Source: Roseiarcus fermentans (GTDB lineage Bacteria; Pseudomonadota; Alphaproteobacteria; Rhizobiales; Beijerinckiaceae). From it: 64,000 bases of DNA. Below are positions 1-18,226 of the stretch, in pieces (within the stretch, counting starts at the first letter, position 1; each line of letters begins with the position of its first letter). The notes under the pieces were generated by a model, which was not told where the DNA came from, ran no database searches, and saw only the letters and a list, made by a program, of their open reading frames with translations. A program made the position numbers and the translations under genes. The stretch is taken from NCBI RefSeq assembly GCF_003315135.1, contig NZ_QNRK01000019.1, positions 11,657-75,656 of the forward strand, given 5' to 3'.

Positions 1-5
1 CTTTC

Positions 6-1397
6 CTAAGAAACGGCGAGATCGGCGACCGGCGCCACGGCGGCTTGCAAAACGAATCCGAAGGCCTTGGCGCGCCGTTGGAGGTTATCGATGACCCGCT
101 CTCGGTATCGGGTCTCGTAATAAGAAGCGCCGGGGTCGACGTAATCCATGCCGTGGCGCAGCGCATTGTAGAACAGCACCGCAATTTTCCTCGCCGTCGC
201 GGTGACGGCCTTGGCCTTGCCGACGCGCGCCGACAATCGCCGGTAGAAGGCTCCCAGCGCGGTGTCGGTCCGGCCAATGGTCACGGCGGCCAGGCGCAGG
301 AGCGACGCGGCGCGGCTCCCGGATCGTCGAGTGCGCGAGGACAGCACCTTGCCCCCCGATATCTTGTTGCCGGGCGCCAGACACAGCCACGAGGTGAAGT
401 GCTTGGCGCTTGGCCATGCCGAAAGATCATCGCCGCATTCCGACACCAGCTTGAGCGCGAGATAAGGGCCAATGCCATGGATCCTGGTCAGGTCTTTGCC
501 GAGCAGGGAATGCAGCGCCGCCCCGACATCGAAGGCGAGGCCGTTCGGCTGGCGGCTCTGGCGCTTCGGCGGCGGTCCAGAAGCATCGCGCCGCCCATCG
601 CCTTCGTGCGCCCGAACCGAACCGAGCTGCTTCAAGACAGCCTCGATCCGGACATCGCAAGCGGCGACCTTGTGCTGATAGACGTCGTAAAGCGCCACCG
701 CCTGCTCCAGGACGAACAGGTGCTCGGCCCGGTAATGGCCGGTCAGGGCCCTCTCGATGACGTCCGCGCTCGAATGGCAACGCGTGTCGCGCATGGACGC
801 CAGTACGGCCGGGTCGCGCTCACCGGCGATGATCGCCCGGATGATGCGCATGCCGGTCGCCCCCGTGATGTCGGAAACGACGTGATGAAGCTGCAAGTTC
901 ATCTCCGTCATGGCCTTCTGCATATGCTGGATATGAGAGGCCGCGCTGTCCAGCAGCCGCTCGCGCTGGCGCAGATAGGCGCGTAGTTCAACAATCTCGC
1001 CGCTCGGTCGGAAGCTGGCGCGCAACAAGCCGCAGGCATGAAGCCGCTGCAGCCATTGCGCATCGCTGACGTCGGTCTTGCGACCGGGCACATGCTTGGC
1101 GTCACGGGCATTGACCAAAAACACCTCGACGCCGCGCTCTTCGAGCAGTTCGAAAATCGGGATCCAATAAACGCTGGTCGATTCCATCACGACCGTCCTG
1201 ACGCCGCATTCCGCAAACCAGTCGGCCAGCCGGTGTAGGTCAGCCGTGAAAGTGCCAAAGCTGCGAACCGGCTCGGATGACCGGTCCGGACCTACCGCCG
1301 CCATGTGCATGGTCGCGCCAATATCGATGGCGGCCGCGTTTTGATGGATCATCGTCATCGAGGACGATGCACCCATCGGTTTTGTCGGGTCCTTCAT
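6..1397 (-). CDS. IS110-family transposase (DEDD recombinase), copy 1
   Basis: Encodes 463 residues, typical for the family. The N-terminal RuvC-like DEDD catalytic residues are visible as Asp25 (in AIDIG), Glu72 (in VVMES) and Asp109/Asp112 (in KTDVSDAQ). The C-terminal half has the helix-hairpin-helix and Transposase_20 signature (HGIGPYLA near residue 315, then SWLCLAPGNKISGGK). I chose the ATG at 1397 because an AGGAGG lies seven bases upstream; the ATG six bases earlier would sit almost on the Shine-Dalgarno. The predicted role is cutting and rejoining of the element's circular intermediate. It looks intact and probably active. Confidence 0.92.
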   Translation of the reverse strand: MKDPTKPMGASSSMTMIHQNAAAIDIGATMHMAAVGPDRSSEPVRSFGTFTADLHRLADWFAECGVRTVVMESTSVYWIPIFELLEERGVEVFLVNARDAKHVPGRKTDVSDAQWLQRLHACGLLRASFRPSGEIVELRAYLRQRERLLDSAASHIQHMQKAMTEMNLQLHHVVSDITGATGMRIIRAIIAGERDPAVLASMRDTRCHSSADVIERALTGHYRAEHLFVLEQAVALYDVYQHKVAACDVRIEAVLKQLGSVRAHEGDGRRDASGPPPKRQSRQPNGLAFDVGAALHSLLGKDLTRIHGIGPYLALKLVSECGDDLSAWPSAKHFTSWLCLAPGNKISGGKVLSSRTRRSGSRAASLLRLAAVTIGRTDTALGAFYRRLSARVGKAKAVTATARKIAVLFYNALRHGMDYVDPGASYYETRYRERVIDNLQRRAKAFGFVLQAAVAPVADLAVS

Positions 1398-1622
1398 CTT
1401 CATTCCTCCTGCTGACAAAAGCGGAAGGGCTGGGCTGCGCAAGCGATCAATTTCCTAACCGGGATCGCCCGAAGACGTCACCATTCTCAAGTTCGCAACA
1501 ACCCATGGACCATGTTTTTTTACGGGGTCACGCGCCACCAAAAAGTAGACGGCCGCTCCCTTCCGTGGCCAGGATAGCGCAAATCGTTTCTACCCCCACA
1601 GGCGGCGTCAAACCGCGCTGGT
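1398..1622 (-). other. IS110 non-coding end, candidate bridge-RNA region (also 3019-3243)
   Basis: About 225 bp between the transposase start and the unit junction, present identically in both copies. In the IS110 group, the non-coding end upstream of the recombinase gene encodes a structured bridge RNA whose loops pair with target and donor DNA (established for IS621). Position and size fit, but I have not folded it or located the guide loops. A tandem junction can also create a promoter that drives this RNA and the transposase. Confidence 0.35.
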
Positions 1623-3243
1623 TTTCCTAAGAAACGGCGAGATCGGCGACCGGCGCCACGGCGGCTTGCAAAACGAATCCGAAGGCCTTGGCGCGCCGTT
1701 GGAGGTTATCGATGACCCGCTCTCGGTATCGGGTCTCGTAATAAGAAGCGCCGGGGTCGACGTAATCCATGCCGTGGCGCAGCGCATTGTAGAACAGCAC
1801 CGCAATTTTCCTCGCCGTCGCGGTGACGGCCTTGGCCTTGCCGACGCGCGCCGACAATCGCCGGTAGAAGGCTCCCAGCGCGGTGTCGGTCCGGCCAATG
1901 GTCACGGCGGCCAGGCGCAGGAGCGACGCGGCGCGGCTCCCGGATCGTCGAGTGCGCGAGGACAGCACCTTGCCCCCCGATATCTTGTTGCCGGGCGCCA
2001 GACACAGCCACGAGGTGAAGTGCTTGGCGCTTGGCCATGCCGAAAGATCATCGCCGCATTCCGACACCAGCTTGAGCGCGAGATAAGGGCCAATGCCATG
2101 GATCCTGGTCAGGTCTTTGCCGAGCAGGGAATGCAGCGCCGCCCCGACATCGAAGGCGAGGCCGTTCGGCTGGCGGCTCTGGCGCTTCGGCGGCGGTCCA
2201 GAAGCATCGCGCCGCCCATCGCCTTCGTGCGCCCGAACCGAACCGAGCTGCTTCAAGACAGCCTCGATCCGGACATCGCAAGCGGCGACCTTGTGCTGAT
2301 AGACGTCGTAAAGCGCCACCGCCTGCTCCAGGACGAACAGGTGCTCGGCCCGGTAATGGCCGGTCAGGGCCCTCTCGATGACGTCCGCGCTCGAATGGCA
2401 ACGCGTGTCGCGCATGGACGCCAGTACGGCCGGGTCGCGCTCACCGGCGATGATCGCCCGGATGATGCGCATGCCGGTCGCCCCCGTGATGTCGGAAACG
2501 ACGTGATGAAGCTGCAAGTTCATCTCCGTCATGGCCTTCTGCATATGCTGGATATGAGAGGCCGCGCTGTCCAGCAGCCGCTCGCGCTGGCGCAGATAGG
2601 CGCGTAGTTCAACAATCTCGCCGCTCGGTCGGAAGCTGGCGCGCAACAAGCCGCAGGCATGAAGCCGCTGCAGCCATTGCGCATCGCTGACGTCGGTCTT
2701 GCGACCGGGCACATGCTTGGCGTCACGGGCATTGACCAAAAACACCTCGACGCCGCGCTCTTCGAGCAGTTCGAAAATCGGGATCCAATAAACGCTGGTC
2801 GATTCCATCACGACCGTCCTGACGCCGCATTCCGCAAACCAGTCGGCCAGCCGGTGTAGGTCAGCCGTGAAAGTGCCAAAGCTGCGAACCGGCTCGGATG
2901 ACCGGTCCGGACCTACCGCCGCCATGTGCATGGTCGCGCCAATATCGATGGCGGCCGCGTTTTGATGGATCATCGTCATCGAGGACGATGCACCCATCGG
3001 TTTTGTCGGGTCCTTCATCTTCATTCCTCCTGCTGACAAAAGCGGAAGGGCTGGGCTGCGCAAGCGATCAATTTCCTAACCGGGATCGCCCGAAGACGTC
3101 ACCATTCTCAAGTTCGCAACAACCCATGGACCATGTTTTTTTACGGGGTCACGCGCCACCAAAAAGTAGACGGCCGCTCCCTTCCGTGGCCAGGATAGCG
3201 CAAATCGTTTCTACCCCCACAGGCGGCGTCAAACCGCGCTGGT
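1623..3243 (-). mobile_element. IS110-family element, copy 2 of a direct tandem pair
   Basis: Second unit of the tandem pair, in the same orientation as the first. Its right border falls in a run of seven T residues (3243-3249), where a truncated IS3-type orfA begins. The element therefore inserted into another insertion sequence. The junction between the copies (around 1620-1626) joins the right end of one unit directly to the left end of the next, as in a circular IS110 intermediate. Confidence 0.85.
1627..3018 (-). CDS. IS110-family transposase (DEDD recombinase), copy 2
   Basis: Its 463-residue product is identical to that of the gene at 6-1397, with the same AGGAGG and start context at 3018. 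It lies 230 bp upstream of copy 1 in the same orientation, so both could be transcribed together across the junction. Two uninterrupted identical copies side by side suggest a very recent event or a circular-dimer insertion. An assembly artefact from one repeated element is also possible. Confidence 0.9.
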   Translation of the reverse strand: MKDPTKPMGASSSMTMIHQNAAAIDIGATMHMAAVGPDRSSEPVRSFGTFTADLHRLADWFAECGVRTVVMESTSVYWIPIFELLEERGVEVFLVNARDAKHVPGRKTDVSDAQWLQRLHACGLLRASFRPSGEIVELRAYLRQRERLLDSAASHIQHMQKAMTEMNLQLHHVVSDITGATGMRIIRAIIAGERDPAVLASMRDTRCHSSADVIERALTGHYRAEHLFVLEQAVALYDVYQHKVAACDVRIEAVLKQLGSVRAHEGDGRRDASGPPPKRQSRQPNGLAFDVGAALHSLLGKDLTRIHGIGPYLALKLVSECGDDLSAWPSAKHFTSWLCLAPGNKISGGKVLSSRTRRSGSRAASLLRLAAVTIGRTDTALGAFYRRLSARVGKAKAVTATARKIAVLFYNALRHGMDYVDPGASYYETRYRERVIDNLQRRAKAFGFVLQAAVAPVADLAVS

Positions 3244-3246
3244 TTT

Positions 3247-3661
3247 TTTGGATTTCGACGATCGCCTCGGCGCGCTGCAAGCGCAACGTCACGCTCTTGT
3301 AGTCGCGCTGCAACCGGGCATGTTCGGCCGCCAGCGGATTGGGCTCGGCGACCTTGGGGCCGCGCTTGACCGCCTTCAGCCCCTCGCAGGCGCCGGCGTC
3401 GCGTTGCCGGCGCCAATCCGTCAACAGCGAGGAATAGAGCCCGTCGCGCCGCAGGATCGCGCCAATGCCGCCCGGCCCCGCCTCATCGACCTGGCGAAGG
3501 ATCCCAAGCTTGTAGGCGGTCGTGAACGTCCGCCGGCGTGGCCGGTCGGAGAGTTCAGGCGAGGCCGCCGACGGCGCCGCAATGAGGCTCGGCCTTCGGC
3601 CTCCCTCTGTTGCGGCGCCGTCGGCAAGAGTCTTTTCGAAGGGGATGACCGGCATGACCAT
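3247..3661 (-). pseudogene. IS3-family transposase OrfA, 3' end cut by the IS110 pair
   Basis: The N-terminal ~138 residues of an IS3-type OrfA. They include the helix-turn-helix segment (RRRTFTTAYKLGILRQVDEA, then LYSSLLTDWRRQRDAG) and the start of the coiled-coil linker (NPLAAEHARLQRDYKSVTLR, ending EIQK). The frame then runs into IS110 DNA at a poly-A tract on the coding strand. The end of OrfA and the DDE-carrying OrfB are missing and would be expected left of the window. The start could be 3661 or the Met two codons later. Confidence 0.8.
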
Positions 3662-3734
3662 GGGAGGATGTGACCTCAGCCCTCAAGGGTAAACTCCAGG
3701 GGGGCGTTTGTCTCATCGTCATTGGCACGGAGGG

Positions 3735-4183
3735 GGTTGGCTTCAAGCCAACCGAGCCGTGACGTTGCGAATGCTCCGGGCCGTCCACCGGCCGCCCCGA
3801 GCGGTCGCATAGTCCCGAGCGTTGAGCACGCCAGCATGGCGTTGGCGGACGTGATGCCCTCGGCCTTCAAGGCGTTGAGCGTCGCCGCCAGACCTGCCGC
3901 CCGCTCGTCTGCTTTGGCTTTGAGAACCTGCACGGCAAGTTCGTTGAAGCCATGGCCCTGTAGATGCGCTGCGCCGGCCGGACAGCCGAGGCGCTTGATC
4001 TCCGGGTGATTCGTTGCCCGGACACGGCGACCTTCCTCCGAGCCTCTGCCTGCGCCGCCTTGGTGCGGGTCGAGATCATCTTGCGCTAGGCCTGACCGAT
4101 CACAGCCATGATGCCGACCACCAGCTCGTTGGCCTCGGGCATGTCGGAAGTCTGTCCCGTGCAAAGTGTGACCGGCATTCGTT
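3735..4183 (-). pseudogene. Serine recombinase (resolvase/invertase) remnant
   Basis: Pieces of one serine-recombinase core can be read in different frames. They are a MPEANELVVGIMAVIGQA segment followed by a TAG stop, RKMISTRTKAAQAEARRK in the same frame, and then AAHLQGHGFNELAVQVLKAK and LKAEGITSANAM in another. This order matches the end of the catalytic domain, the long helix and the start of the DNA-binding region in site-specific serine recombinases of phages and transposons. The active-site serine region is absent. There are at least one stop and one or more frameshifts, so it is dead. Confidence 0.7.
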
Positions 4184-4472
4184 TCTCGCGGCTGGACGTC
4201 TCGGCGCCGGTTCTTCCTCTTGACGCAACCGAACAGGTGGCCTGCCGCCTTTACGCGCCCCTTACGCGCACAGCCGCCGATCGGAATTGAAGGCTTACGG
4301 CGGGCTGACCTAGCGTTTCAACGTTGACTAATCTCTGCGGAATCGGCCGCGCGCGCCTTTGGACCGGGTGGCTCGAAGACGGGCAACAGGCGCGGCCGAT
4401 GCGGCCGACGCCAACGCGGAAGCACGTCTCCGCTTGGCCGGTCCGACGCCGCTGAGGCGAGAGGAGCGTTCG

Positions 4473-4568
4473 ATGAATCTGTTTGTCTGGCTGCCCGCGA
4501 TGTTCGCGCTCGGCCTTGTCAGCCTGGGCGTCTGTTACGCCTTCGTGTTCGCCTGCGAAGACATCTGA
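4473..4568 (+). CDS. 31-residue membrane protein at the head of the kdp operon
   Basis: Starts at an ATG behind GAGGAGC and encodes 31 residues, almost all one hydrophobic helix, ending in ACEDI. It ends 11 bp before kdpF, whose own Shine-Dalgarno overlaps this spacing, so the two are surely co-transcribed. Very short membrane ORFs ahead of kdpF are seen in other alphaproteobacterial kdp operons, from memory. It may stabilise the Kdp complex as KdpF does, but that is inference. It is easily missed because of its size. Confidence 0.6.
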   Translation: MNLFVWLPAMFALGLVSLGVCYAFVFACEDI

Positions 4569-4579
4569 GGAGCCGAGAC

Positions 4580-4660
4580 ATGACCTATGTCACGATCGCG
4601 GTGACCGCCGCCGTCATCGTCTACCTGTTCACGGCGCTCATCCGGCCCGAATGGTTCTGA
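4580..4660 (+). CDS. kdpF: KdpF, small subunit of the K+-transporting ATPase
   Basis: Encodes 26 residues: a single hydrophobic helix ending in the typical KdpF tail LIRPEWF (most homologues end ...LLRPERF). KdpF sits in the membrane against KdpA and stabilises the KdpFABC complex. An AGGAG precedes the ATG, and kdpA follows 81 bp downstream in the same direction. Confidence 0.85.
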   Translation: MTYVTIAVTAAVIVYLFTALIRPEWF

Positions 4661-4741
4661 CGGGACCGCCGGTTCTCCATCCTTTTTCGGTCAGGCCCCT
4701 CGCGAAGCCGAGCGCGGGCCGACGCACGATTTGAAAGGCCC

Positions 4742-6562
4742 ATGATCATGTGGCTCCTGCCTGCTATGCTGATCCTGGCGGCGATCGCCTGTTCGATCCC
4801 GCTCAGCGCATACTTCACCTGGCTGATGGAAGGCCGCTATCGCGCGCCGAGGGTTCTCAAGTGGTTCGAGGACCTCGTCGACACCGGTCCGCAGGACTGG
4901 AAGCAGTACACGATCGCGCTGATCGTCTTCAACATCGCGCTGTTCATCTTCGGCTTCGTTGTGCTCAGCCTGCAGCCGTACGCGCCGTTGAACCCGCGCG
5001 GGCTTGGCTGGCTCGAGCCGACGACGATTTTCAACACGGTCATATCCTTTTTGACCAACACCAATCTGCAGCACTATGCGGGCGAGACGGCGCTCTCGAA
5101 TTTCAGCCAGATCTTCTTCATCCTGCCGAACATGTTCCTGTCGGCGTCGGTCGGCTTCTGCGCGCTGGCGGCGATCATCCGCCTCTTCCGCGGCGCGGAG
5201 AAGTGCGGCAACTTCTTCGTCGATATGTGGCGCGTCTGCATGTACATCTACGTGCCGGTCGCCCTGCTGTTCGGGATCATCTTCATGCAGCAGGGCATGC
5301 CGATGACCTACGCTTCGACCGAGGTCGCCACGACCCTCGAGCAGGGCTCGATGGGCCTCGACGACAAGGGCCAGGCGAAGCCGCAGACCATCGTCGTCGG
5401 CCCGGTGGCCGCGGTCATCCCGATCAAGATGCTCGGCACCAACGGCGGCGGCTTTTACGGCATGAATTCCGCCCATCCGCTCGAGAACCCGACGGCGACG
5501 ACGAACTTCTTCACCACGCTCGCGATGATGCTGTTCCCGTTCGCGCTGGTGCTGATGTACGGGCGCATGCTCGGGCGCATAAGGCATTCGGTCGTCATCT
5601 ACGGCGTTATGCTCGCCATGATGATCGGGCTCATCGCCTGGGTGATCCGGACCGATACGATGGAGCCGAATCCCGGCCTCACCGCGCACGCCGCCACGGC
5701 CTGGCAGGTTCCCTCGGCCTCGGCGCCGAGTGGCAAGCTCGACGTTCCGAGTCCGGCCGTCGCGGCCCTCCCGGTCAACCAGCATCTCGGCAATCTCGAA
5801 GGCAAGGAATTGCGCTTCGGCACGTCCGCCGGCGCGGCCTTCGCGGCGATCACCACCGACGTGACCTGCGGCGCGATCAACGCCGAGATGGATAGCCTGA
5901 ATCCGCTCTCCGGGCTCTCGCCGATGATCGGCATGTGGCTGAACTGCGTGTTCGGCGGCAAGGGCGTGGGCATGATCAACCTCTTGCTCTTCCTGATCGT
6001 TGGCGTGTTCCTCGCCGGGCAGATGGTCGGGCGCACGCCAGAATATCTCGGCCGCAAGGTCGGGGCGCGGGAGATGAAGCTCGCCATGATCGCGCTGCTC
6101 GTGCACCCGATCCTGATCCTCGGCCCCGCCGGCCTCTTCGCCGCTACGGGCTGGGGCACGACGGCGGAAGCCAACCCCGGCGCGCACGGGTTCAGCGAGA
6201 TCGTCTACCAGTTCTCGTCGTCGTCGGCGAACAACGGCTCGGCGATGGACGGGCTCGGCGTGACCTACGGCCTCAACGCCAACGCGAGTCCGTCGCCGGA
6301 AGCGGTTCCGTGGGACATCGCTACGGGACTCGTGATGCTGTTCGCCCGTTATCTGCCGATCATCGCGCCGATCGCCATGGCGTTCTCGCTCGGCCGGAAG
6401 AAGGTCGCGCCGGTCACGCTCGGCACCATGAGCGACGACACCGTGACCTTCGGCTTCCTACTGTTCGGCACGATCGCCATCGTCGGCGCGTTGCTGTTCC
6501 TGCCGGTCGCCGCGCTCGGACCGATCGCAGAGCATCTCGGACCGATCCCCTTCGGCGGGTGA
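4742..6562 (+). CDS. kdpA: KdpA1, potassium-binding/translocating subunit
   Basis: A membrane subunit of 606 residues, slightly longer than the usual ~560-600. KdpA is an SKT-superfamily channel-like protein that selects K+ and passes it to KdpB. Its four selectivity-filter loops are visible: TNTN (105-108), TNGGGF (233-238), CGAIN (376-380) and NNGS (497-500). Residues ~310-350 form an extra hydrophilic stretch between membrane segments. The start at 4742 gives MIM; the ATG at 4748 is an alternative. It is the second gene of kdpFABC, and a quite different second KdpA lies at 10710-12425. It probably acts at the inner membrane under low potassium. Confidence 0.93.
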   Translation: MIMWLLPAMLILAAIACSIPLSAYFTWLMEGRYRAPRVLKWFEDLVDTGPQDWKQYTIALIVFNIALFIFGFVVLSLQPYAPLNPRGLGWLEPTTIFNTVISFLTNTNLQHYAGETALSNFSQIFFILPNMFLSASVGFCALAAIIRLFRGAEKCGNFFVDMWRVCMYIYVPVALLFGIIFMQQGMPMTYASTEVATTLEQGSMGLDDKGQAKPQTIVVGPVAAVIPIKMLGTNGGGFYGMNSAHPLENPTATTNFFTTLAMMLFPFALVLMYGRMLGRIRHSVVIYGVMLAMMIGLIAWVIRTDTMEPNPGLTAHAATAWQVPSASAPSGKLDVPSPAVAALPVNQHLGNLEGKELRFGTSAGAAFAAITTDVTCGAINAEMDSLNPLSGLSPMIGMWLNCVFGGKGVGMINLLLFLIVGVFLAGQMVGRTPEYLGRKVGAREMKLAMIALLVHPILILGPAGLFAATGWGTTAEANPGAHGFSEIVYQFSSSSANNGSAMDGLGVTYGLNANASPSPEAVPWDIATGLVMLFARYLPIIAPIAMAFSLGRKKVAPVTLGTMSDDTVTFGFLLFGTIAIVGALLFLPVAALGPIAEHLGPIPFGG

Positions 6563-6632
6563 ACGCCGCCCCCTCCTGCGAGGCGCGGACCCTTCGCGCG
6601 CGCCTCGCCCATAAATTTCAGGAGTTCAAGTC

Positions 6633-8777
<2,145 letters not shown>

Positions 8778-8794
8778 GCTTAAGGAGAACTTCG

Positions 8795-9811
8795 GTGTTG
8801 CGCTATTTCGCAAAGAGCTTCGCGCTCATCGCCGTCGCCGTGGTCGTCACGTGCGGCATCTACCCCGCAATACTTTGGGCGATCGGACAGACGGTGTTTC
8901 CGTTCCAGGCCAACGGCAGCATCGTCCGGAACGCGGACGGCGCGGTCATCGGCTCGATGCTGGTGGCCCAGCCGTTCACCAAGGACGAGTACTTCCAGCC
9001 GCGCCCGTCGGCCGCCTCCTACGATGCGACCGCCTCGACGTCGTCCGGCTATGCGCCCTCGAACTACGCGTTGCGCGATCGCGTCGCCCGAGTGATTGGC
9101 CCGATTGCGACCTACGCGTCCGGCGACAAGAAGGGGCAGGCGGTTGCGCCCGACGTCGAAACCTGGTTTCAGGCCGACAAGTTTGGCGGCAATCCGCACA
9201 TCGTCGCGCAGTGGGCGGACGCGCATAACTCGATCGCACAAGCCTGGGTGACCGGCGATCCGACCCACGGCGCCTTCGTCGACGACTGGTCCAAGGCGCA
9301 TGACGCCGTCGTTCAGGACTGGATCAAGAAGAACCCGGCGACGCCGCAGCCGAAGGGGTCCGACCTCGCCGTGGTCTTCTTCGAGAATTTCTCGAACGAC
9401 CATCCGGGCGCGTTCCCCTCGTCGGTCACCAAGACCGGCGCGGACGGCAAGCCGGCGACGTCGATCGAACCCGTCAACACGGGCTCGGACATCCAGTCGA
9501 TCTTCTTCGACATGTGGCGGTCGGATCATCCCGACGTCGCGCTGAATGACGTTCCGGCCGATCTCGTCACCGCCTCCGCTTCGGGCCTCGACCCCGATAT
9601 CACGCTTGAGAACGCCGAGTTCCAGCTCGATCGAGTCGCGGCCAAATGGGCGGACGACAAGAAGCTCAAGGTCGACGACGTGCGCAAGGAGATTGAGGCG
9701 ATCCTGCAAGACAAGGCGCATGCGCCGTGGGGCGGCCTGATCGGCGAGAAGCTCGTGAACGTCCTCGACGTCAACCTCGAGCTGCACAAGCGTTACGGCG
9801 ACCCGGCCTGA
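8795..9811 (+). CDS. kdpC: KdpC with a large internal extension
   Basis: KdpC is a single-span subunit that helps KdpA-KdpB coupling and nucleotide binding. The GTG start at 8795 sits behind AAGGAGA, 17 bp after kdpB. It gives 338 residues, whereas KdpC is normally about 190-200. The N-terminal membrane helix, the QANGS motif, the IGSMLVAQPF-like segment and the RPSAASYDA-type loop are in the normal order. The C-terminal end LVNVLDVNLEL also matches KdpC. Between them, from about residue 130 to 290, lies an extra Asp/Lys/Trp-rich hydrophilic region that I do not recognise. Frame and composition are continuous, so this is an insertion, not a misjoined gene. Confidence 0.9.
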   Translation: MLRYFAKSFALIAVAVVVTCGIYPAILWAIGQTVFPFQANGSIVRNADGAVIGSMLVAQPFTKDEYFQPRPSAASYDATASTSSGYAPSNYALRDRVARVIGPIATYASGDKKGQAVAPDVETWFQADKFGGNPHIVAQWADAHNSIAQAWVTGDPTHGAFVDDWSKAHDAVVQDWIKKNPATPQPKGSDLAVVFFENFSNDHPGAFPSSVTKTGADGKPATSIEPVNTGSDIQSIFFDMWRSDHPDVALNDVPADLVTASASGLDPDITLENAEFQLDRVAAKWADDKKLKVDDVRKEIEAILQDKAHAPWGGLIGEKLVNVLDVNLELHKRYGDPA

Positions 9812-9957
9812 CGCGAACGGCTTCCATTCGGAGATCCGATAGTCCGGACGGAAGCCAGGGAGGCGCGCGTGGCCATTCGCCTCGTCCCCAGCCGCGCGCG
9901 TCTCCCAATCTCCCTTGCTTCGAATCGCCGGTTCGGCCGGCGCCGCGGACACAACCC

Positions 9958-10698
9958 ATGGGCGCGCGTGTTCCAGGACGCTGCACGACGGTGCTGGTGT
10001 TGACGGGCGAGCCTGCGCTCGTGCGGCTGGCGCGCTCGATCCTCGAGCCTGACCGCATTGTGAGCGGGAGCGCGCCCTTTGGGCCGGAATCACTTGCGGT
10101 CGCCGGCGCGGCCGACATCGTTGTCATCGACCTGGAGGCTGTCGACCAGGACGCGATCCTGGCGGTCCGACGCGCCTACTTCGACGCCGCGCTCATCGTC
10201 CTCTCTCCCGAGCGCGGCGAAACCGCCTGCATCGCCGCGCTCGAAATGGGCGCGGACTATCTTCCCCGCCCGTTCAGCCCCACGGATCTCGCCGTGCGGG
10301 TGCGGGTGGCCGAGCTCAGGCGCTTCGCCGCGACCGGGCGGCCGCGCTTCTACCACAACGGTGCGCTCGCCTTCGACCTGTTCAGTGGCAAGCTGTCGAT
10401 CGACGGCCAGACAGTAGCGCTGGCGCCGTCCGAACTCGCCGTTTTGGCCCATCTCGCCGGCAAAGCGGGCGGCGTCGTCGGTTACGAGCGGCTTCTTGGG
10501 GACGCCGAATCCGCAGGCTCACCGCGTGGGCGAGCGGCGCTGCGCTCCTGCGTTATGCACCTCAGGCACAAGATCGAGCGCGATCCGCTCCATCCCGAAA
10601 TTCTGCTCGCCGAGATCGGCGTGGGCTACCGCCTGGCGCCTCCGACCGCCGGCCCCATGCGCCGGCCGCGCGATTGCCTTCCAAAAGACCCAGAATAG
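9958..10698 (+). CDS. OmpR/KdpE-type response regulator with atypical receiver
   Basis: A 246-residue protein with a receiver-like domain (about 13-125) and a C-terminal winged-helix DNA-binding domain (about 140-230, ending IGVGYRL). The phosphate-accepting Asp58 is kept (VIDLE). The acidic pair usual at the start of the receiver is replaced by TGE, and the invariant Lys of KPF is Arg104 (LPRPF). Such receivers often work without phosphorylation. It lies between kdpC and a second kdpA, and no sensor kinase KdpD is present. I infer it regulates kdp, perhaps constitutively or through a non-phospho signal. The ATG at 9958 was chosen because upstream codons show no receiver homology. Confidence 0.8.
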   Translation: MGARVPGRCTTVLVLTGEPALVRLARSILEPDRIVSGSAPFGPESLAVAGAADIVVIDLEAVDQDAILAVRRAYFDAALIVLSPERGETACIAALEMGADYLPRPFSPTDLAVRVRVAELRRFAATGRPRFYHNGALAFDLFSGKLSIDGQTVALAPSELAVLAHLAGKAGGVVGYERLLGDAESAGSPRGRAALRSCVMHLRHKIERDPLHPEILLAEIGVGYRLAPPTAGPMRRPRDCLPKDPE

Positions 10699-10709
10699 GG
10701 CGTACCCTC

Positions 10710-12425
10710 ATGTTCAGGACTGTCACTGGTTTTTTCGAAATCGTATTCACGCTTGCGCTCGTCGTCGTCGCCGCCCGTCCCCTCGGCGCCTATATGGCGG
10801 ACCTCTTTCAGAATCGTCGCACCGTCCTCACGCCGATCCTCGGCCCCATTGAGCGGGCCTTCTACTGGGCGGCCGGCGTCAAGTCCGAGGACGAGCAGGA
10901 ATGGGACGCCTACGCGATCTCCATGGTCCTGTTCGGCGGCGCGTGCATGCTCTCGCTTTACGCGATCCTGCGCCTGCAGGCCTGGCTGCCGCTCAACCCA
11001 CAGGGCTTTCCGGCCGTGCCGCCCGACCTCGCCTTCAATATCGCGGTGAGCTTCGTCACCAACGCCAATTGGCAGGCCTATGGCGGCGAGACGACGCTGT
11101 CGCATCTGTCGCAGATGGTCGGGCTCACCGCCAACAACTTCCTCGACTCGGGGGCGGCGATCGCCATCGCGGTCGCGCTCGTCCGAGCGCTCACGCGCAA
11201 CGAATCGACGACGATCGGCAATTTCTGGGTCGACGTCACCCGCGCGACGCTCTACGTGCTGCTGCCCGTGGCGTTCGTCCTCGCGCTCGTGTTCGCTGCG
11301 TTCGGCGTGCCCCAGACTCTCGTCGGGTCGATCGGGGCGGCGACGCTCGAGGGCCTAAAGCAGACAATCGCCATCGGGCCGGTCGCGAGCCAGGAGGCGA
11401 TCAAGCTGCTCGGCGACAACGGCGGCGGGTTCTTCAACGCCAATTCCGCCCATCCGTTCGAGAATCCGAGCGTCTGGTCGAACATTTTGCAGAACTGGAG
11501 CCAGCTCGTTCTGCCGGTAGCGCTGGTGTTCGCCTTCGGCCGCATGGCCGGCGACGCGAAACAAGGGCGGGCGCTGCTGATCACGATGGCCGTCATCTTC
11601 GTGATGGCGCTGGCGGTGATCTGGAAGGTCGAGGCGGCGGGCAATCCGGCGCTGACCGCGATTGGCGTCGATCCCTCGCAAGGCGTCATGGAAGGCAAGG
11701 ACCTGCGCTTCGGCCAGGCGGGCGCCGCCCTGTTCGCCGATGCGACAACGGGGACCGGTACGGGCGCATCGAACGCCGTCCTCGAATCCATGGCGCCGAT
11801 CTCCGGCCTCGCCGCGATGTTCAATTTGCTGCTCGGCTGCATCTCGCCCGGCGGCGTCGGGACCGGGCTCTATAGCCTCCTGCTCCTGGTCTTGATCACA
11901 GCGTTCATTGGCGCGCTGATGATCGGGCGGACCCCCGAGTATCTCGGCAAGAAGATCAATGCTCGCGACATGCAGTTCGCGATGTTCGCTCTCCTCCTGT
12001 CGCCGGCGCTCGTGCTCGTCTTTGCCGGCGGCGCGTCCGTCGTCAAGATCGCCCTCGACAGCCTCGGAGCGGGCGGCCCGCACGGGCTCAGCGAGATCGT
12101 CTACGCCTACGCGTCCAGCGCCGCCGACAACGGCTCGGCCTTCGCCGGCCTGAACGCGAACACGCCGTGGTGGAACGTCACGACTGGGGTCGCGATGTTT
12201 CTCGGCCGCTTCGCGCATGCGATCCCGATCCTCGCGATCGCCGGATCTCTGGCGGCGAAGAAAAAGGCGATGCCTTCGGCCGGAACCCTGCCGACCGACG
12301 GCCCGCTGTTCATAACCTTCCTGCTGGCGGTGATCGTGATCATCACGTTGCTGCAATATCTCCCGGCGCTTGCGCTCGGTCCGGTCGCCGAGCACTTCCT
12401 GCTTCAGCAAGGGACGCTGTTCTGA
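10710..12425 (+). CDS. kdpA: KdpA2, second potassium-binding subunit
   Basis: A second KdpA of 571 residues, close to classical KdpA length and clearly diverged from KdpA1. Its filter loops read TNAN (117-120), DNGGGF (236-241), TGASN (351-355) and DNGS (473-476), against TNTN, TNGGGF, CGAIN and NNGS in KdpA1. The start ATG at 10710 lies 11 bp after the response-regulator stop, so the two genes are probably co-transcribed. No kdpB or kdpC follows. It could form an alternative complex with the shared KdpB/KdpC, act as a KdpB-independent K+ route, or be a leftover from a second operon. The reading frame is open and the key glycines are present, so it looks functional. Confidence 0.9.
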   Translation: MFRTVTGFFEIVFTLALVVVAARPLGAYMADLFQNRRTVLTPILGPIERAFYWAAGVKSEDEQEWDAYAISMVLFGGACMLSLYAILRLQAWLPLNPQGFPAVPPDLAFNIAVSFVTNANWQAYGGETTLSHLSQMVGLTANNFLDSGAAIAIAVALVRALTRNESTTIGNFWVDVTRATLYVLLPVAFVLALVFAAFGVPQTLVGSIGAATLEGLKQTIAIGPVASQEAIKLLGDNGGGFFNANSAHPFENPSVWSNILQNWSQLVLPVALVFAFGRMAGDAKQGRALLITMAVIFVMALAVIWKVEAAGNPALTAIGVDPSQGVMEGKDLRFGQAGAALFADATTGTGTGASNAVLESMAPISGLAAMFNLLLGCISPGGVGTGLYSLLLLVLITAFIGALMIGRTPEYLGKKINARDMQFAMFALLLSPALVLVFAGGASVVKIALDSLGAGGPHGLSEIVYAYASSAADNGSAFAGLNANTPWWNVTTGVAMFLGRFAHAIPILAIAGSLAAKKKAMPSAGTLPTDGPLFITFLLAVIVIITLLQYLPALALGPVAEHFLLQQGTLF

Positions 12426-12550
12426 AGAAAGGCGGTAACAGCAGCCAAGCCCGGAACTTTATCGATCGCTAACGAGCGAGGGGCGAGTTCCGTCTTGTTC
12501 GCTTACGGGCGCCGGCACAAAATTGCGTCCGGAAATAAGGGAGTTGAAGC

Positions 12551-12736
12551 ATGCGTAGCTTCCTGTCACATCCGCACAGGCCCCTCGATCGCCCACGCAC
12601 GTTGCCTGAACTTGATGCGCGCAACGAACACGAGCCGATAGCCACTTCGGCAATGGTCGGCCGTATCGGCTTGCTTCTACTCATCGTCCTCAGCTTAGCG
12701 CTGGCCGCGCAGCTTTTTGCCGGGGCGCCTCGTTGA
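12551..12736 (+). CDS. Small single-span membrane protein
   Basis: 61 residues: a charged N-terminal half rich in Arg, Pro and Glu, then one hydrophobic helix (about 38-56) and a short tail. A GGAG lies 6 bp before the ATG. It follows kdpA2 by 125 bp on the same strand. I do not recognise the family; compare 13712-13894, which has the same architecture (charged N-terminus, one C-terminal helix). Confidence 0.6.
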   Translation: MRSFLSHPHRPLDRPRTLPELDARNEHEPIATSAMVGRIGLLLLIVLSLALAAQLFAGAPR

Positions 12737-12765
12737 TCGAGGCTCGCGCAGCACTGGAGGCCTCC

Positions 12766-13023
12766 ATGGTTCCTCAAGACATCAAAGTGGCGACCAACGC
12801 TTGCCTGTTCATCGGACAGGATCGATGCGGGCGCTGGGTCGTTAGAGACGGTCGCGGCATGTGCGGGGGACTGTTTGCCGACCGCACCGCGGCGATTCGG
12901 TTCGCGATGTATGAATGCCAGAGCCGCCCCCAATCGGTCATTATGCTGCCGGAAGGACTCGAACTGGACCCGGCCTTCGCGCTCCCCGTCGCGGCCAATT
13001 GGAGAAGCAAGCGCGCCGCCTGA
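12766..13023 (+). CDS. Conserved hypothetical protein, 85 residues
   Basis: The ATG at 12766 has a GGAGG five bases upstream; an upstream TTG at 12733 would overlap the previous gene and lacks such a site. The product has a GRWVVRDGRGMCGGLFADR segment followed by AAIRFAMYEC, a pattern I associate with short rhizobial hypothetical proteins of unknown role. No signal peptide or membrane helix. Probably soluble. Confidence 0.7.
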   Translation: MVPQDIKVATNACLFIGQDRCGRWVVRDGRGMCGGLFADRTAAIRFAMYECQSRPQSVIMLPEGLELDPAFALPVAANWRSKRAA

Positions 13024-13711
13024 CTTTCGTCCGCGGTGACCGCGGCGCCAGAGGACCTTGGCGCACGAAATCGGCCTTTCGCCCGCTCCAGCCATCCACT
13101 GTTCGTCGCGCTCCACGGCCAGGAACAGTTGGATCTGTTGCTCGCCTAGCATGACGATTGGGATTCGTCGCTTCTCATTGGGCGCCGCAATGAGAAGCGA
13201 TGACCGGCAAGGGAAGCCGGAACGGCCCTGTCGTTTGGTCTCCGGCGCCGGGTCTTCCCTGTTGACGCTTGTTGGCCCGGAATCCGCCCGCGGATATTCC
13301 AGCGGCGCCCATGGCTCGCAGCCCGTTCTGACGCGCAGAAAAACTGTCGGAGCGTCGGCCCACGGTGTGCGCAAGCGCATGGCTTCTCAAAGCCATTTCT
13401 CCCCTCGTCCCTCAGCGTGGCGAGTCGCGCCCGCCGGCCATACGGTTCGGCGCAAGGGCGGCCGATCTTTCGCTCCGCAGCTCGCCGATTATTCGCCGGA
13501 CAGTCCTGCGGATGCAGCCTAAATCGCACGTAAGGCAGACGACCGGCCGATCGGGATCAAACGAATGGAGCCGAGGACCTGCGAAGGGGCGCCGGTCATA
13601 CCCGTGACCTCGGTCCTCACGGAATTCTTACTTCAGGTGGGCGCATTCCATATCGCTTGTTTATGCGCTCAGGGCTTATGAACGAATAAGCCGAAAGCTC
13701 TGAGTTGTTTC
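13024..13711. other. 688-bp stretch without a supported gene
   Basis: Open frames exist on both strands, but none has a recognisable family, a good ribosome binding site or consistent codon use. The only clear structure is the inverted repeat at 13168-13200. Confidence 0.5.
13168..13200. repeat. Inverted repeat, 12-bp arms, 9-base loop
   Basis: The arms TCGCTTCTCATT and AATGAGAAGCGA are perfectly complementary around a GC-rich 9-base loop. No run of T follows on either strand, so a classical Rho-independent terminator is not supported. It may be an element end, an operator or a processed hairpin. Confidence 0.7.
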
Positions 13712-13894
13712 ATGCGAAGGTTCCCACCCGACGGAACGGTCTCCCGCGGCTCTCGACTGCAGGTCTGGGCTCTCAACGATGAGCGTGATCGTAGGCTGCG
13801 CCCGCCCGCGAACTTGCTAGCCCGTCTCGCGGCGTTGCTCGCGGTCGCACTCTGTTTCGGATTGGCCGGGCACTTTCTGGTCGGCGCGGCCTAG
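13712..13894 (+). CDS. Small single-span membrane protein
   Basis: 60 residues with a basic, hydrophilic N-terminal half and one C-terminal hydrophobic helix (about 38-57). The ribosome binding site is weak (GAGTTG 11 bases upstream). The layout resembles the protein at 12551-12736. Function unknown. Confidence 0.5.
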   Translation: MRRFPPDGTVSRGSRLQVWALNDERDRRLRPPANLLARLAALLAVALCFGLAGHFLVGAA

Positions 13895-13957
13895 TCCCGA
13901 AAGCGCCTCAGGGCACTTGCGGCATTCAGGATCGGCGCGCACGGCAGTCGCTTAGCC

Positions 13958-14104
13958 ATGAAACCCCTTTCAACCCTATTTTGGGGCCTAGTTTTCGTCA
14001 CGGCGGGCGTCACCTACCGTTGGGGCAGCATGGTCGGCCTGATCTTTTTTGTCTTCGCGCTGATGATCGGCTCGGTCGTCGCTTCGCACTGGGCACTACA
14101 TTGA
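13958..14104 (+). CDS. 48-residue two-helix membrane protein
   Basis: Starts at the ATG at 13958 and ends at TGA 14102-14104. Two hydrophobic segments (about 6-20 and 25-42) are separated by a short YRWGS loop. It follows the small membrane protein at 13712-13894 by 63 bp in the same direction. No family recognised and no strong Shine-Dalgarno, so confidence is moderate. Confidence 0.45.
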   Translation: MKPLSTLFWGLVFVTAGVTYRWGSMVGLIFFVFALMIGSVVASHWALH

Positions 14105-14114
14105 CAGATTGAGA

Positions 14115-14345
14115 CTAGCGAAGGATGTCGAAGGCCATTGTCGGTTGGCGCTTAATTGCGGCAATGGGCTCATGGGTTCGCTCTTTAGGGACTTGGTATT
14201 CGGCGCCCGATTTCACGCAACGACTCGCCAGCGGAATGTCCGAGGTGACGACGATTGCGCCTGGCCCGGCCCGCTCGGCGATCCAGTCGTCCGCAGCGTC
14301 CGGGACCGCCCCGAGGACAACCCGCGCTGAGACGAGGCGGCGGCC
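14115..14345 (-). pseudogene. YaiI/YqxD (DUF188) family remnant
   Basis: The minus strand reads [20 protein letters not shown], then [13 protein letters not shown], the signature core of DUF188 proteins (a PIN-like fold of unknown cellular role). The reading stops at a TAG at 14115-14117. The usual N-terminal half with the WVDADACP motif is missing, and the C-terminal part is poorly conserved. The fragment is about half the normal length and has no plausible start. Confidence 0.6.
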
Positions 14346-14554
14346 TCCCCCGAAGTCGGCGTGACGGGGTTGCTGTAGCTGGAAAAAGCATTCTTTCCGA
14401 TCCGAGGCGCTTGATCGAGATCATTGCCGTGGCGCGGCGCTCGGGTAACGCTTTAGCGATGACGAAGGCGAAGGAACCGAAGATCGCATCGACGGCGATG
14501 GTCGGCTCGACGGCGACACCTGGCAAGACTGAAATCGAAGCGAACGGAGAATCA

Positions 14555-16834
14555 ATGCCAAAGCACTTCGATTTTGTGCTGCTTGGCGGCGGCCCGGCCG
14601 GCGTGAGCGCCGCCGAGACGCTGCGCGCCGAAGGCGCCACCGGCAGCATCCTGCTGGTCTCGGGCGAGACAAGTCGGCCCTACGGGCACACCTTTTTGCC
14701 CAAGCAGTTTCTCTTGGGCGCGATGCCAAAAGAGAAGCTTATGATCCACGACGCGGCTTACTACCGGGAGCGGGCGATCGATATAATGCCTGGCGTTCTT
14801 GCGGTCGCCGTCGATGCGCCTGACCGGCTTGTGCGCACCGATTGCGCCGGGGACTTCCATTTCGACAAACTGCTGATTGCGACGGGGACGAAGCCCATTC
14901 GCTTGACCGTTCCGGGCTCCACATTAGCGGGCGTCCATTACCTGCAAACAATAGGGGATGCCGAGGCGCTCAGAGAGGCCGCCAAGAACGCCACGCGCGT
15001 CGTCGTTGTCGGCGGCGGCTTTCTCGGCCTCGAAGTCGCCGCGTCGCTCGCCCGCATGGGCGTTCATGTCACGCTGATCGAGGAAAACGAACTCCTGCTC
15101 CCGCAGCTTGCCGCTCCCGAACTCTCGGCGTTCTTCAGCCGCTATTGCGCGGAGCGCGGCATTGAGCTGCGCACGAACGACATCGCCGTCGCCTTGAAGG
15201 GCGCCAGCCGCGTGGAGGCGGTGGTGGCGCGCTCCGGGGAACTCTGGCCATGCGACCTGGTGGTCGTCGCGATCGGCGTGACGCCGGAGACCGGGTTTCT
15301 TCGCGACAGCGGCATTTTGCTTGGCGACGGCATTTTGGTCGACCAGTATCTCGAAACGAGCGCGCCGGGCGTCTTCGCGGCCGGCGACGTGGCGAATTTC
15401 TTTGACATCGTATTCAAGCAGCGCCGTCGGATCGAGCATTGGGACAACGCTGTCAAGCAGGGGCGGCTTGCGGCCCGGAACATGCTCGAGCGAAGATTGG
15501 CTTATGACGAGGTTTCCTATTTCTTCTGCAATATTCTCGACCTCAGTTTCAACTTCCTCGGCTCGACGCAAGACGTAGACGACCGCGTCAGCCGTGGATC
15601 GCTGGAGGATCGCTCATTCGCATTGTTCTATCTCAAGAACGACGTTGTGCATGCTTCCTTCTCCATGGGGCGTCCAGCCAGCGAGACGCTCGCAACCGAA
15701 CTGATGATCCGCCATCACGTCAATGTGCGTTCAATACATGATAGGCTTTCGGACGAGAACTTCGCGCTGGAGGGCGTTGCCACCCAGACCGTTCTGATCC
15801 TGCAGGGCGGCGGCGCCTTGGGCGCCTTTGAATGCGGAGTGGTCAAAGCGCTGGAGGAGGCGGCCATCCATCCCGATATCGTCGCCGGAGTCTCCATCGG
15901 CGCCTTCAACGGCGCGATCATCGCCGGCAATCCGGGTAAAGCCGCCGAGGCGCTGGACGCATTTTGGAACGACCTTTCCGTTGCGACGCCGTACGCGCCC
16001 ACCGAAGCCTGGCAGGAAGCGCTGGCGTTATGGTGGAGCATCTGGTTCGGCTCTCCGCGTTTCTTCCTGCCGCACTGGCAGCTGCCGCCGGACGATCTTC
16101 CGTGGAACTGGACGAGCCTATACGACTTCGGGCCGGCCAGAGTGTTGCTGGAGAAGTATGTTGATTTCAGCCGCCTCCGAGAAAGTCCAGTGCGCCTGCT
16201 GGTCAGCACCGTCAATGTCGAGACCGCGCAGCTTGAAGTTTTCGATAGCCGCGCTGATGACATCACGGTGGACCATATCCTGGCCAGCGGCAGTTTGCCG
16301 GCGGCCTTTCCATGGACCACCATCCAGAGGAAACATTATTGGGACGCCGGCATCGTCAGCAATTCACCGCTGGAACTGGTGACCGAGCGATGCGGCGAGG
16401 TTAGCAAACGCGTATTCATCGTTGATCTCTTCGCGAGCCAGCAGCGATTGCCAGAGAATCTCGCCGAGGTCTTAATGCGGCGCGAAGAGATCGTTTATTC
16501 GGAACGCGTCCGCAGCGACGTGCGCCATCGGGAACGGATCGGCGATTTCCGGAGGCTGGTGTATGAGATCATGGACAATCTAGAGCCCGAGGCCGGCCAG
16601 CGACTGCGGCAGAGCCCGCGCTTCATTCAGCGGATGGCTGACACTGCGCCGACGACGATCACGCGGATTATGAACGAAGGCGCGGAGGGCGAGCCGCCTT
16701 TTGCGGCCAACAACTTCTCCGCGCCGACCATCGAGCGGCTGAAGAAAGCCGGCTACCACATGGCAAAACGCGCCATTCTGGGCAGCCCCGCCGAGGCTGC
16801 GCACGCCACGAAACGACAGGACACTCTGAACTGA
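14555..16834 (+). CDS. Fusion: FAD/NAD(P)-dependent reductase + patatin-like phospholipase
   Basis: 759 residues in one uninterrupted frame. Residues 1 to ~400 are a pyridine-nucleotide-disulfide/rubredoxin-reductase type flavoprotein. It has the FAD site GGGPAG near residue 10, the NAD(P) site GGGFLGLEVA near residue 152, and the second FAD motif FAAGDVANF near residue 275. Residues ~410-640 are a patatin-type lipase: oxyanion loop GGGALG (418-423), nucleophile elbow GVSIG with Ser447, and catalytic Asp597 (WDAG, where most patatins have DGG). GAGAA lies just upstream of the chosen ATG. No signal peptide or membrane span, so probably cytosolic. A membrane-lipid hydrolase tied to a redox domain suggests redox-controlled lipid turnover, which is inference. 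Confidence 0.88.
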   Translation: MPKHFDFVLLGGGPAGVSAAETLRAEGATGSILLVSGETSRPYGHTFLPKQFLLGAMPKEKLMIHDAAYYRERAIDIMPGVLAVAVDAPDRLVRTDCAGDFHFDKLLIATGTKPIRLTVPGSTLAGVHYLQTIGDAEALREAAKNATRVVVVGGGFLGLEVAASLARMGVHVTLIEENELLLPQLAAPELSAFFSRYCAERGIELRTNDIAVALKGASRVEAVVARSGELWPCDLVVVAIGVTPETGFLRDSGILLGDGILVDQYLETSAPGVFAAGDVANFFDIVFKQRRRIEHWDNAVKQGRLAARNMLERRLAYDEVSYFFCNILDLSFNFLGSTQDVDDRVSRGSLEDRSFALFYLKNDVVHASFSMGRPASETLATELMIRHHVNVRSIHDRLSDENFALEGVATQTVLILQGGGALGAFECGVVKALEEAAIHPDIVAGVSIGAFNGAIIAGNPGKAAEALDAFWNDLSVATPYAPTEAWQEALALWWSIWFGSPRFFLPHWQLPPDDLPWNWTSLYDFGPARVLLEKYVDFSRLRESPVRLLVSTVNVETAQLEVFDSRADDITVDHILASGSLPAAFPWTTIQRKHYWDAGIVSNSPLELVTERCGEVSKRVFIVDLFASQQRLPENLAEVLMRREEIVYSERVRSDVRHRERIGDFRRLVYEIMDNLEPEAGQRLRQSPRFIQRMADTAPTTITRIMNEGAEGEPPFAANNFSAPTIERLKKAGYHMAKRAILGSPAEAAHATKRQDTLN

Positions 16835-17138
16835 GGAAACCGTTCCTGTACGGCCCGAACATCGGGGCGTGGGATGTTATTCGGCATGGGGTCCGATCGT
16901 TTGGGCCGTGCTATCCGGTTAACGCAGACACCCACTACATATGGATTTGGCCGCGAGCCAAGATCGGCGATCGACCCCGATGCGGTGATTCGCGTCTAGC
17001 CAGAATGCAATCTTCTGAAACTCGGCGCACCCCATGTGTTTCGAGAGGTCGCGTCTGGCTTGCTTGCGACGACATCGCTAAAGGTCGAGGGGATGACGAC
17101 TTTGGCGTCGCGGTCGTATCTGTCGGCGGGAAATAGTC
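16835..17138. other. 304-bp intergenic stretch
   Basis: No supported gene or clear repeat. It probably carries the promoter of the NmrA-like gene at 17139. Confidence 0.5.
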
Positions 17139-18065: not shown

Positions 18066-18226
18066 AGGTTGACGTGTTTTGAAATCAAACGCGAATGCGT
18101 CCGCTTCCCTCCCGACACCTGCCGCTGACATCCGCCGCTTTCCAGCCGCTGGGCTACGGATACCTGCCTGCCACGTCGCGCACGATCGGTTAGCAGTCAC
18201 TCGCGTTCGCCGCTCATTGACGCCGA

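What the first reader, a model, noticed from the sequence alone, without database searches (positions are those of the whole stretch)
4473..12425. Potassium-uptake island with two different KdpA subunits, one KdpB and no KdpD
The sequence shows kdpF-kdpA1-kdpB-kdpC, then a response regulator, then a second full-length kdpA with different filter-loop residues (TNAN, DNGGGF, TGASN, DNGS against TNTN, TNGGGF, CGAIN, NNGS). Kdp complexes normally use one KdpA. I infer either subunit exchange on a shared KdpB/KdpC, giving two affinities, or a leftover of a second operon.
Basis: partly seen in the sequence, partly recalled or inferred. Interest (0 to 1): 0.75.

Follow-up and report, generated by a model that had tools for sequence, protein, structure and literature searches.

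The report
Spare potassium-pump channel subunit, altered filter
This bacterium carries an extra copy of the ion-selecting subunit of its potassium pump whose filter has been changed, and two separately arisen groups of such extra copies turn up in related bacteria, suggesting that some cells may swap the filter of this pump to change what it lets through.

Summary
In detail: kdpF-kdpA1-kdpB-kdpC, a response regulator and a second intact kdpA (KdpA2, 10710-12425) lie in one row, with the stated filter differences. KdpA2 is not a private leftover: it belongs to a well-supported clade of five second or stand-alone KdpAs in five genera (in one genome kdpA-B-C-A2-D in one operon; in another, between two KirBac channel genes). 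A second clade of six stand-alone KdpAs, in three families, arose separately (AU test p 7e-08). Both changed near-invariant selectivity-filter positions (mostly T230 to D/N and N466 to D; or T230 to G, N231 to D, N466 to T) while keeping about 93% of conserved residues, including KdpB-contact Arg400. Control groups of operon KdpAs changed at most one filter column. Purifying selection and a kdpB in 10 of 10 genomes tested favour a working, filter-variant KdpA that borrows a KdpB. Partner and ion are untested; a KdpB-free channel or a regulatory subunit remains possible.

The parts
4580..4660 (+). kdpF-like 26-aa ORF (MTYVTIAVTAAVIVYLFTALIRPEWF)
   Evidence: likeness to KdpF is recalled, not searched
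4742..6562 (+). kdpA1, 606 aa, divergent KdpA with insert; filter TNTN / GTNGGGF / TCGAIN / NNGS
6633..8777 (+). kdpB, 714 aa; 59% identical to the KdpB on contig C18
8801..9811 (+). kdpC, about 336 aa (start chosen by me), the KdpC domain matched in two stretches around an insert
9958..10698 (+). OmpR/KdpE-like response regulator with a degenerate receiver (VDDE to LTGE, EKPF to PRPF; phospho-acceptor Asp kept)
10710..12425 (+). kdpA2, 571 aa, filter-variant KdpA (T113A, S140D, T230D, S343G, N466D in E. coli numbering); 11 bp after the regulator

Best explanation
KdpA2 is a functional, filter-remodelled paralogue of the ion-selecting subunit of the KdpFABC pump. It is made without a KdpB of its own and most likely docks on a KdpB/KdpC made by another kdp gene set of the cell (more likely the canonical C18 set than the island's set), giving an alternative pump with lower affinity or looser ion choice. 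Shown: gene content, clade membership, filter substitutions, retained KdpB-contact Arg, purifying selection, linkage to kdp genes in several genomes, a kdpB in every genome tested. Inferred: assembly with KdpB, changed affinity or selectivity, and control of kdpA2 by the adjoining atypical regulator, which may work without phosphorylation.
For: Tree: five KdpA2-type proteins form one clade (FastTree 1.0, SH-aLRT 100) and six 'SB' solo proteins another (FastTree 1.0, SH-aLRT 99-100); one joint clade is rejected (AU p 7e-08). Filter: KdpA2 clade T230 to D (3 of 5) or N (1 of 5), N466 to D (4 of 5), T113 to A (4 of 5), S140 to D (5 of 5); SB clade T230G, N231D, N114S, C344D, N466T in 6 of 6. In 112 operon KdpAs T230 is T in 110, N231 is N in 112, N466 is N in 109. 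Control: 112 overlapping groups of five nearest operon KdpAs have 0 (109 groups) or 1 (3 groups) changed filter column, against 4 and 5 in the two solo clades at the same 95% threshold. Three plasmid operon KdpAs opened as a check have the ordinary filter. KdpA2 and SB keep 92.8% and 92.9% of residues conserved at 97% or more in operon KdpAs (E. coli 98%, KdpA1 91%), and Arg400 in all. Arg400 bridges to KdpB (PMC6255902 passages). A filter Asp in E. coli (G232D) lowers K+ affinity and admits Rb+ and NH4+ while staying coupled (PMC12629597 section 6). Synteny: A-B-C-A2-D-E in G588; A2 convergent with kdpDE, about 6 kb from kdpABC, in G187; SB divergent from kdpABCD, 1.9 kb apart, in G779. dN/dS (NG86) 0.09-0.21 for four KdpA2 pairs. 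A kdpB in 10 of 10 tested genomes of the two clades against 112 of 199 in the family.
Against: No structure or complex could be predicted. Most KdpB-interface positions are hydrophobic and variable, so the test is weak and does not tell the two KdpBs apart; another paper calls the Arg400 salt bridge dispensable (PMC8385062 passages). In G037 the gene stands between two KirBac genes with no kdpB in the 18 kb held. The filter set is not uniform: G588 keeps T230, G713 keeps N466, G037 keeps T113. Some letters are not exclusive: Asp at 466 occurs in 1-2 operon rows and Asp at 344 in 5 of 112. A paralogue born by duplication would start in kdpB-bearing genomes anyway, so 10 of 10 is not independent proof. 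dS is near saturation.
Confidence: 0.45

Rival explanations
1. KdpA2 works without KdpB, as a channel or passive cation conduit of the KdpA/TrkH/KtrB superfamily, no longer part of a pump.
For: Stand-alone loci in several genomes; in G037 it is flanked on both sides by KirBac inward-rectifier genes; changed filter and a new Asp at position 140; tunnel position 496 is H or S in the four KdpA2 proteins that cover it, against Y or F in 80 of 112 operon KdpAs, and V496H about halves E. coli ATPase activity (PMC12629597 section 8).
Against: Arg400 (KdpB contact), Arg493 and the bulk of conserved residues are kept; kdpB present in 10 of 10 tested genomes; in E. coli no pore through KdpA to the cytoplasm could be calculated, the path being blocked by an intramembrane loop (PMC6255902 passages).
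Confidence: 0.25
2. KdpA2 is a regulatory or dominant-negative subunit: it competes for KdpB/KdpC to throttle the pump, or senses ions.
For: Acidic filter changes would be expected to lower K+ affinity; it sits with an atypical regulator or next to kdpD/kdpE in G588 and G187.
Against: Filter glycines are kept and the gene is under purifying selection, as for a conducting protein; no direct evidence of a regulatory role.
Confidence: 0.12
3. KdpA2 is a relic of a lost operon, on its way to decay.
For: Decayed copies exist: the own-genome remnant on C10 and the copy in G703 that lacks its N-terminal part.
Against: Four full-length open reading frames (plus one running off a contig) in five genera, dN/dS 0.09-0.21 and a shared set of filter changes; intact ORF in the window 11 bp after the regulator.
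Confidence: 0.12
4. KdpA2 pairs specifically with the island's own KdpB, as the first reader proposed (two KdpAs sharing one KdpB in one island).
For: Same strand, same island, 0.9 kb after kdpC; G588 also has the second kdpA inside a kdp operon.
Against: KdpA2 is 40% identical to KdpA1 and 59% to KdpA3; the decayed RR-kdpA2 pair on C10 shows that the pair existed apart from A1-B-C; interface positions do not favour either partner.
Confidence: 0.06

Closest known systems
KdpA of the E. coli KdpFABC pump (5MRW, 6HRA and others)
   Same: Whole-length homology (phmmer 1.4e-153, residues 6-562), filter glycines, Arg400, Arg493
   Different: No kdpB directly downstream; T113A, S140D, T230D, S343G, N466D; tunnel position 496 is His
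E. coli KdpA G232D filter mutant (PMC12629597, sections 6 and 8 and passages)
   Same: An added Asp in the D2 filter strand
   Different: Natural, at 230 (or 231 in the SB clade) and not 232; function not measured
Stand-alone channels of the SKT superfamily (TrkH, KtrB)
   Same: Same superfamily and four-fold filter (stated in PMC8385062 passages)
   Different: KdpA2 is in the KdpA family by sequence; KdpB contact residues kept
KdpE response regulators
   Same: Best NCBIfam match of the regulator is KdpE PRK10529 (90 bits, far below its 325 cut-off); DNA-binding domain
   Different: Acidic pair and conserved Lys of the receiver lost; no partner kinase in the island

Membership tests
KdpA (PF03814 / TIGR00680) | Full-length model match above the curated cut-off | tested here: met
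   728.8 and 660.2 bits
KdpA (PF03814 / TIGR00680) | Conserved filter signature T-N-G in D2, N-N-G in D4 | tested here: not met
   D-N-G and D-N-G in KdpA2; 110 and 109 of 112 operon KdpAs have T230 and N466. Filter glycines are kept.
KdpA (PF03814 / TIGR00680) | KdpB-contact Arg400 | tested here: met
   R in the 5 KdpA2, 6 SB and 112 of 112 operon KdpAs
KdpFABC pump subunit | Assembles with KdpB and KdpC and supports ATP-driven uptake | not testable with these tools
   needs biochemistry; structure prediction was off
KdpFABC pump subunit | Encoded directly upstream of its kdpB | tested here: not met
   none of the 4 KdpA2 genes whose downstream side is held is followed by kdpB (G713 runs off its contig)
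Stand-alone SKT channel | Conducts cations without KdpB | not testable with these tools
   no functional data
KdpE-type phosphorylated response regulator | Acidic pair, acceptor Asp and conserved Lys of the receiver | tested here: not met
   DD pair to T-G, Lys to Arg, acceptor Asp kept

The most novel reading that the evidence does not exclude
Some Alphaproteobacteria run KdpFABC as a pump with interchangeable filters: at least twice, KdpA was duplicated, released from its kdpB and given an acidic selectivity filter, so that one KdpB/KdpC engine can be fitted with a second KdpA that moves a different cation (for example NH4+ or Rb+-like ions) or K+ at another affinity.
Probability: 0.3. Interest if true: 0.85.

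Novelty: new variant of a known kind. Interest (0 to 1): 0.62.

Why it matters
KdpFABC is the well-known case of a channel-like subunit joined to a P-type ATPase, and recent work holds that the KdpA filter governs ion choice while KdpB is rather promiscuous (PMC12629597). Natural, separately evolved KdpA paralogues whose substitutions concentrate in that filter are a natural experiment for that claim: they predict that selectivity can be changed by swapping one subunit, and they give ready-made filter variants kept by selection. If instead they work without KdpB, they would show how a pump subunit turns back into a channel.

Tried and rejected
Rejected: 'one KdpB in the cell' (second operon on C18); 'found only here'; 'contact residues degraded'. 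Plasmid records gave no KdpA2 relative at 60% or more (465 of 465 matching records under 60%); for the SB protein 16 of 464 records reach 60-80%. Three plasmid hits were opened (3 of the 55 rows listed): all are kdpA-kdpB-kdpC operons with the ordinary filter; the other rows were not examined. One DNA-pattern hit (G1134) was not a KdpA. No sigma-70-like promoter match in 3600-12800 (0 found, 1.1 expected by shuffle), which says little for this group. Rfam found nothing in 1-20000. The genome-contig scan with KdpA2 returned 21 loci, 19 of them with kdpB, and no member of the KdpA2 clade; its six peptide patterns were taken from KdpA2 itself. Planotetraspora (L077) also has a KdpA without kdpB within 9 kb but with kdpB elsewhere in its genome; its place in the tree is unsure (long branch) and it was left out of both clades, as was the solo of G079, which joins neither. 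Which KdpB is the partner could not be settled by interface positions. The DUF2254 gene next to both the C10 remnant and the G627 solo was looked for in the held loci only.

Limits of the counts: the pairing of kdpA with kdpB places was done by eye. One search's 112 operon KdpAs come from 125 aligned rows after setting aside 5 KdpA2, 4 SB, 2 other solos, KdpA1 and E. coli; they include a few rows at contig ends or with other gene orders (L048, L063, L089, L130, L156, L161, L166) whose kdpB is not directly downstream in the stretch held. The Fisher tests treat columns as independent and the rows of a clade share ancestry. The two later SB members (G1098, G779) were found by their filter motif, so they do not count as independent evidence for that motif; the other SB-wide letters (N114S, C344D, N466T) were not part of the search. 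G713's KdpA2 runs off its contig, so whether a kdpB follows it is unknown.
Full report
OBSERVATION. The island is real and its genes are intact. From 4580: a kdpF-like 26-aa ORF, kdpA1 (606 aa), kdpB (714 aa), a long kdpC (about 336 aa, the KdpC domain matched in two stretches), a 246-aa regulator (9958-10698) and, 11 bp later, kdpA2 (10710-12425, 571 aa).

WHAT THE WINDOW DOES NOT SHOW. The window is G000:C19:11657-75656 of a 6.79-Mb, 90-contig genome. Contig C18 holds a complete canonical kdpA-kdpB-kdpC-kdpD followed by a KdpE-like gene. KdpA2 is 59.4% identical to that KdpA, 40.0% to KdpA1; KdpA1 and KdpA3 are 42.3% identical. Contig C10 holds a broken copy of the pair: a 118-bp stretch like the regulator (73%), then 86 and 77 bp like kdpA2 (83% and 81%), in the same order. 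So [regulator-kdpA2] is a unit that also existed apart from kdpA1-B-C.

RECURRENCE. I searched the window's family (199 and then 397 genomes, overlapping) and order (397 genomes) with KdpA2, and the 199 family genomes with kdpB (112 of 199 over the cut-off). Five proteins form the KdpA2 clade: window, G037, G588, G187 and a contig-edge copy in G713 (62-77% identical to each other; support 1.0 in FastTree, and SH-aLRT 100 in IQ-TREE on 73 of 128 rows). They come from five genera. Settings: in G588 the gene sits inside the operon, kdpA-kdpB-kdpC-kdpA2-kdpD-kdpE. In G187 it is convergent with kdpD-kdpE, about 6 kb from kdpABC. In G037 it lies between two KirBac inward-rectifier genes, with the canonical operon elsewhere. 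A member without its N-terminal part is in G703. In the order search the best match outside the family was 57% identical.

A SECOND, SEPARATE GROUP. Four more KdpAs without a neighbouring kdpB (G076, G185, G125, G627) form another clade, called SB here. Their D2 filter reads S/G-G-D-G-G-G. A search for the G-D-G-G-G-F-F-N motif as a DNA pattern in 372 genomes of the class found two more (G1098, G779), in two other families; both fall in the SB clade (SH-aLRT 99-100). In G779 the gene is divergent from a kdpABCD operon, 1.9 kb apart; in G627 it stands 3.3 kb from a kdpABC set whose kdpB is matched in pieces; in G1098 it follows, about 1 kb on, a KdpD-like gene (36% identity). Holding both clades together as one is rejected (AU p 7e-08, log-likelihood lower by 138), so they are separate origins under this model. 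The equivalent pattern for the KdpA2 filter matched, besides the window, one place that is not kdpA. Pattern searches ask for exact motifs and miss variants.

WHAT CHANGED. At 95% conservation in operon KdpAs, 4 of 17 filter columns but 5 of 116 others changed in most KdpA2 proteins (Fisher p 0.016; 0.007 and 0.04 at the 90% and 97% thresholds), and 5 of 17 against 3 of 116 in the four SB rows of that test (p 0.0008; 0.014 and 0.004). The same count on 112 overlapping groups of five nearest operon KdpAs gave 0 changed filter columns in 109 and 1 in 3; their other columns ranged from 0 (66 groups) to 18. N231 is Asn in 112 of 112 operon rows and Asp in 6 of 6 SB (two of them found by that motif); S140 is Ser in 113 of 113 operon rows and Asp in 5 of 5 KdpA2. 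The set is not uniform: G588 keeps T230, G713 keeps N466, G037 keeps T113. Some letters are not exclusive: Asp at 466 is in 1-2 operon rows, and Asp at 344 in 5 of 112. Outside the filter the proteins are conservative: 462 of 498 cells at 97%-conserved columns are kept in KdpA2 and 378 of 407 in four SB (E. coli 100 of 102, KdpA1 93 of 102). Arg400, which bridges to the KdpB P domain in one E. coli structure, is kept in all; the contact positions 386, 389, 421, 422, 538 and 541 stay hydrophobic or Tyr, save one Ser at 421 in the unplaced G079 solo (positions from PMC6255902 passages). Another paper calls that salt bridge dispensable (PMC8385062 passages). Tunnel position 496 is His or Ser in the four KdpA2 that cover it and Val in SB. 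dN/dS by NG86 is 0.09-0.21 for four KdpA2 pairs and 0.10-0.21 for three operon pairs; dS is high and may be saturated.

MECHANISM. In E. coli, an Asp at Gly232, two residues from position 230, lowers K+ affinity and admits Rb+ and NH4+, with very little Na+ activity and with ATPase still coupled; the authors conclude that the filter governs ion selection and that KdpB is rather promiscuous (PMC12629597: abstract, passages and sections 6 and 8). By analogy (inference) the acidic filters of KdpA2 and SB should lower K+ affinity or loosen selectivity. Because KdpB contacts are kept and a kdpB was present in all 10 genomes of the two clades that were tested (G000, G037, G588, G187, G713, G076, G185, G125, G627, G779; chance 0.003 at the family rate of 112 of 199, not corrected for kinship or for origin by duplication), I favour docking on a KdpB made elsewhere. 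The nearest candidate is the C18 KdpB, since KdpA2 is of the canonical type. The KirBac setting in G037 argues the other way. The regulator before kdpA2 has lost the acidic pair and the Lys of the receiver but keeps the acceptor Asp, so it may act without a kinase, which would fit the missing kdpD; this is inference.

KNOWN OR NEW. Seven full-text searches of the held open library for a second, orphan, additional or paralogous KdpA showed no title or abstract start about such a gene. Three of them (15, 62, 75) held no paper at all; in the other four I saw listings only, apart from passages of PMC7603488 and PMC9062700, which do not describe one. Three papers contain the string kdpA2; I did not look it up in them. 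Subscription papers are not covered, so 'not described before' is not shown. KdpA2 is a KdpA by family models; it fails the filter signature and the operon position. I therefore call it a new variant of a known kind.

VERDICT. Real, recurrent, under selection, and with two separate sets of filter changes: more than a leftover. Partner, ion and physiological role are open and testable.

Noticed in passing
window 12733-13023: A ~96-aa protein without a Pfam match lies just downstream of kdpA2; relatives (core like GRWVVRDGRGMCGGLFADR..A.RFAM) lie in about 16 other fetched kdp loci, operon and solo alike. It may be kdp-linked; no non-kdp loci were checked, so it may also just be common.
   Followed up: partly
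window 6-1442 and 1627-3063: Two ORFs with identical 478-aa translations, transposase-like by eye (not searched), stand upstream of the island, and a weak, below-cut-off HTH_Tnp_1 match at 3149-3661; the island may be mobile.
   Followed up: no
L057 / L065 (G193), position 1-1675: By eye, an operon KdpA of a same-genus genome has a KdpA2-like N-terminal part (TNANWQAYGGETT) and an operon-like rest, as if the two genes had recombined; it is the one operon row with T113A.
   Followed up: partly
L014 9946-11298 and L164 9567-10895: A DUF2254 membrane-protein gene (68% identical) stands next to both the decayed RR-kdpA2 remnant and the SB solo kdpA of G627.
   Followed up: partly
L046 6532-7461, 7644-9353, 9421-10449: In G037 the KdpA2 gene is sandwiched between two KirBac-type inward-rectifier K+ channel genes.
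   Followed up: yes
L048 5120-6568 and 11270-11542: A kdpA of G187 is split by about 4.7 kb of other DNA, in front of kdpB and kdpC.
   Followed up: no
L085 9004-10963: In Cryobacterium flavum a KdpA-like stretch (about residues 14-232) is directly followed by KdpD-like and regulator-like stretches, in a genome with no kdpB over the cut-off.
   Followed up: no
window 8801-9811: The island KdpC is much longer than the C18 one (about 336 against 201 aa) because of an insert inside the KdpC domain.
   Followed up: no
   Followed up: no
window 14255-16834: One ORF joins a pyridine-nucleotide-disulphide oxidoreductase to a patatin-like phospholipase.
   Followed up: no
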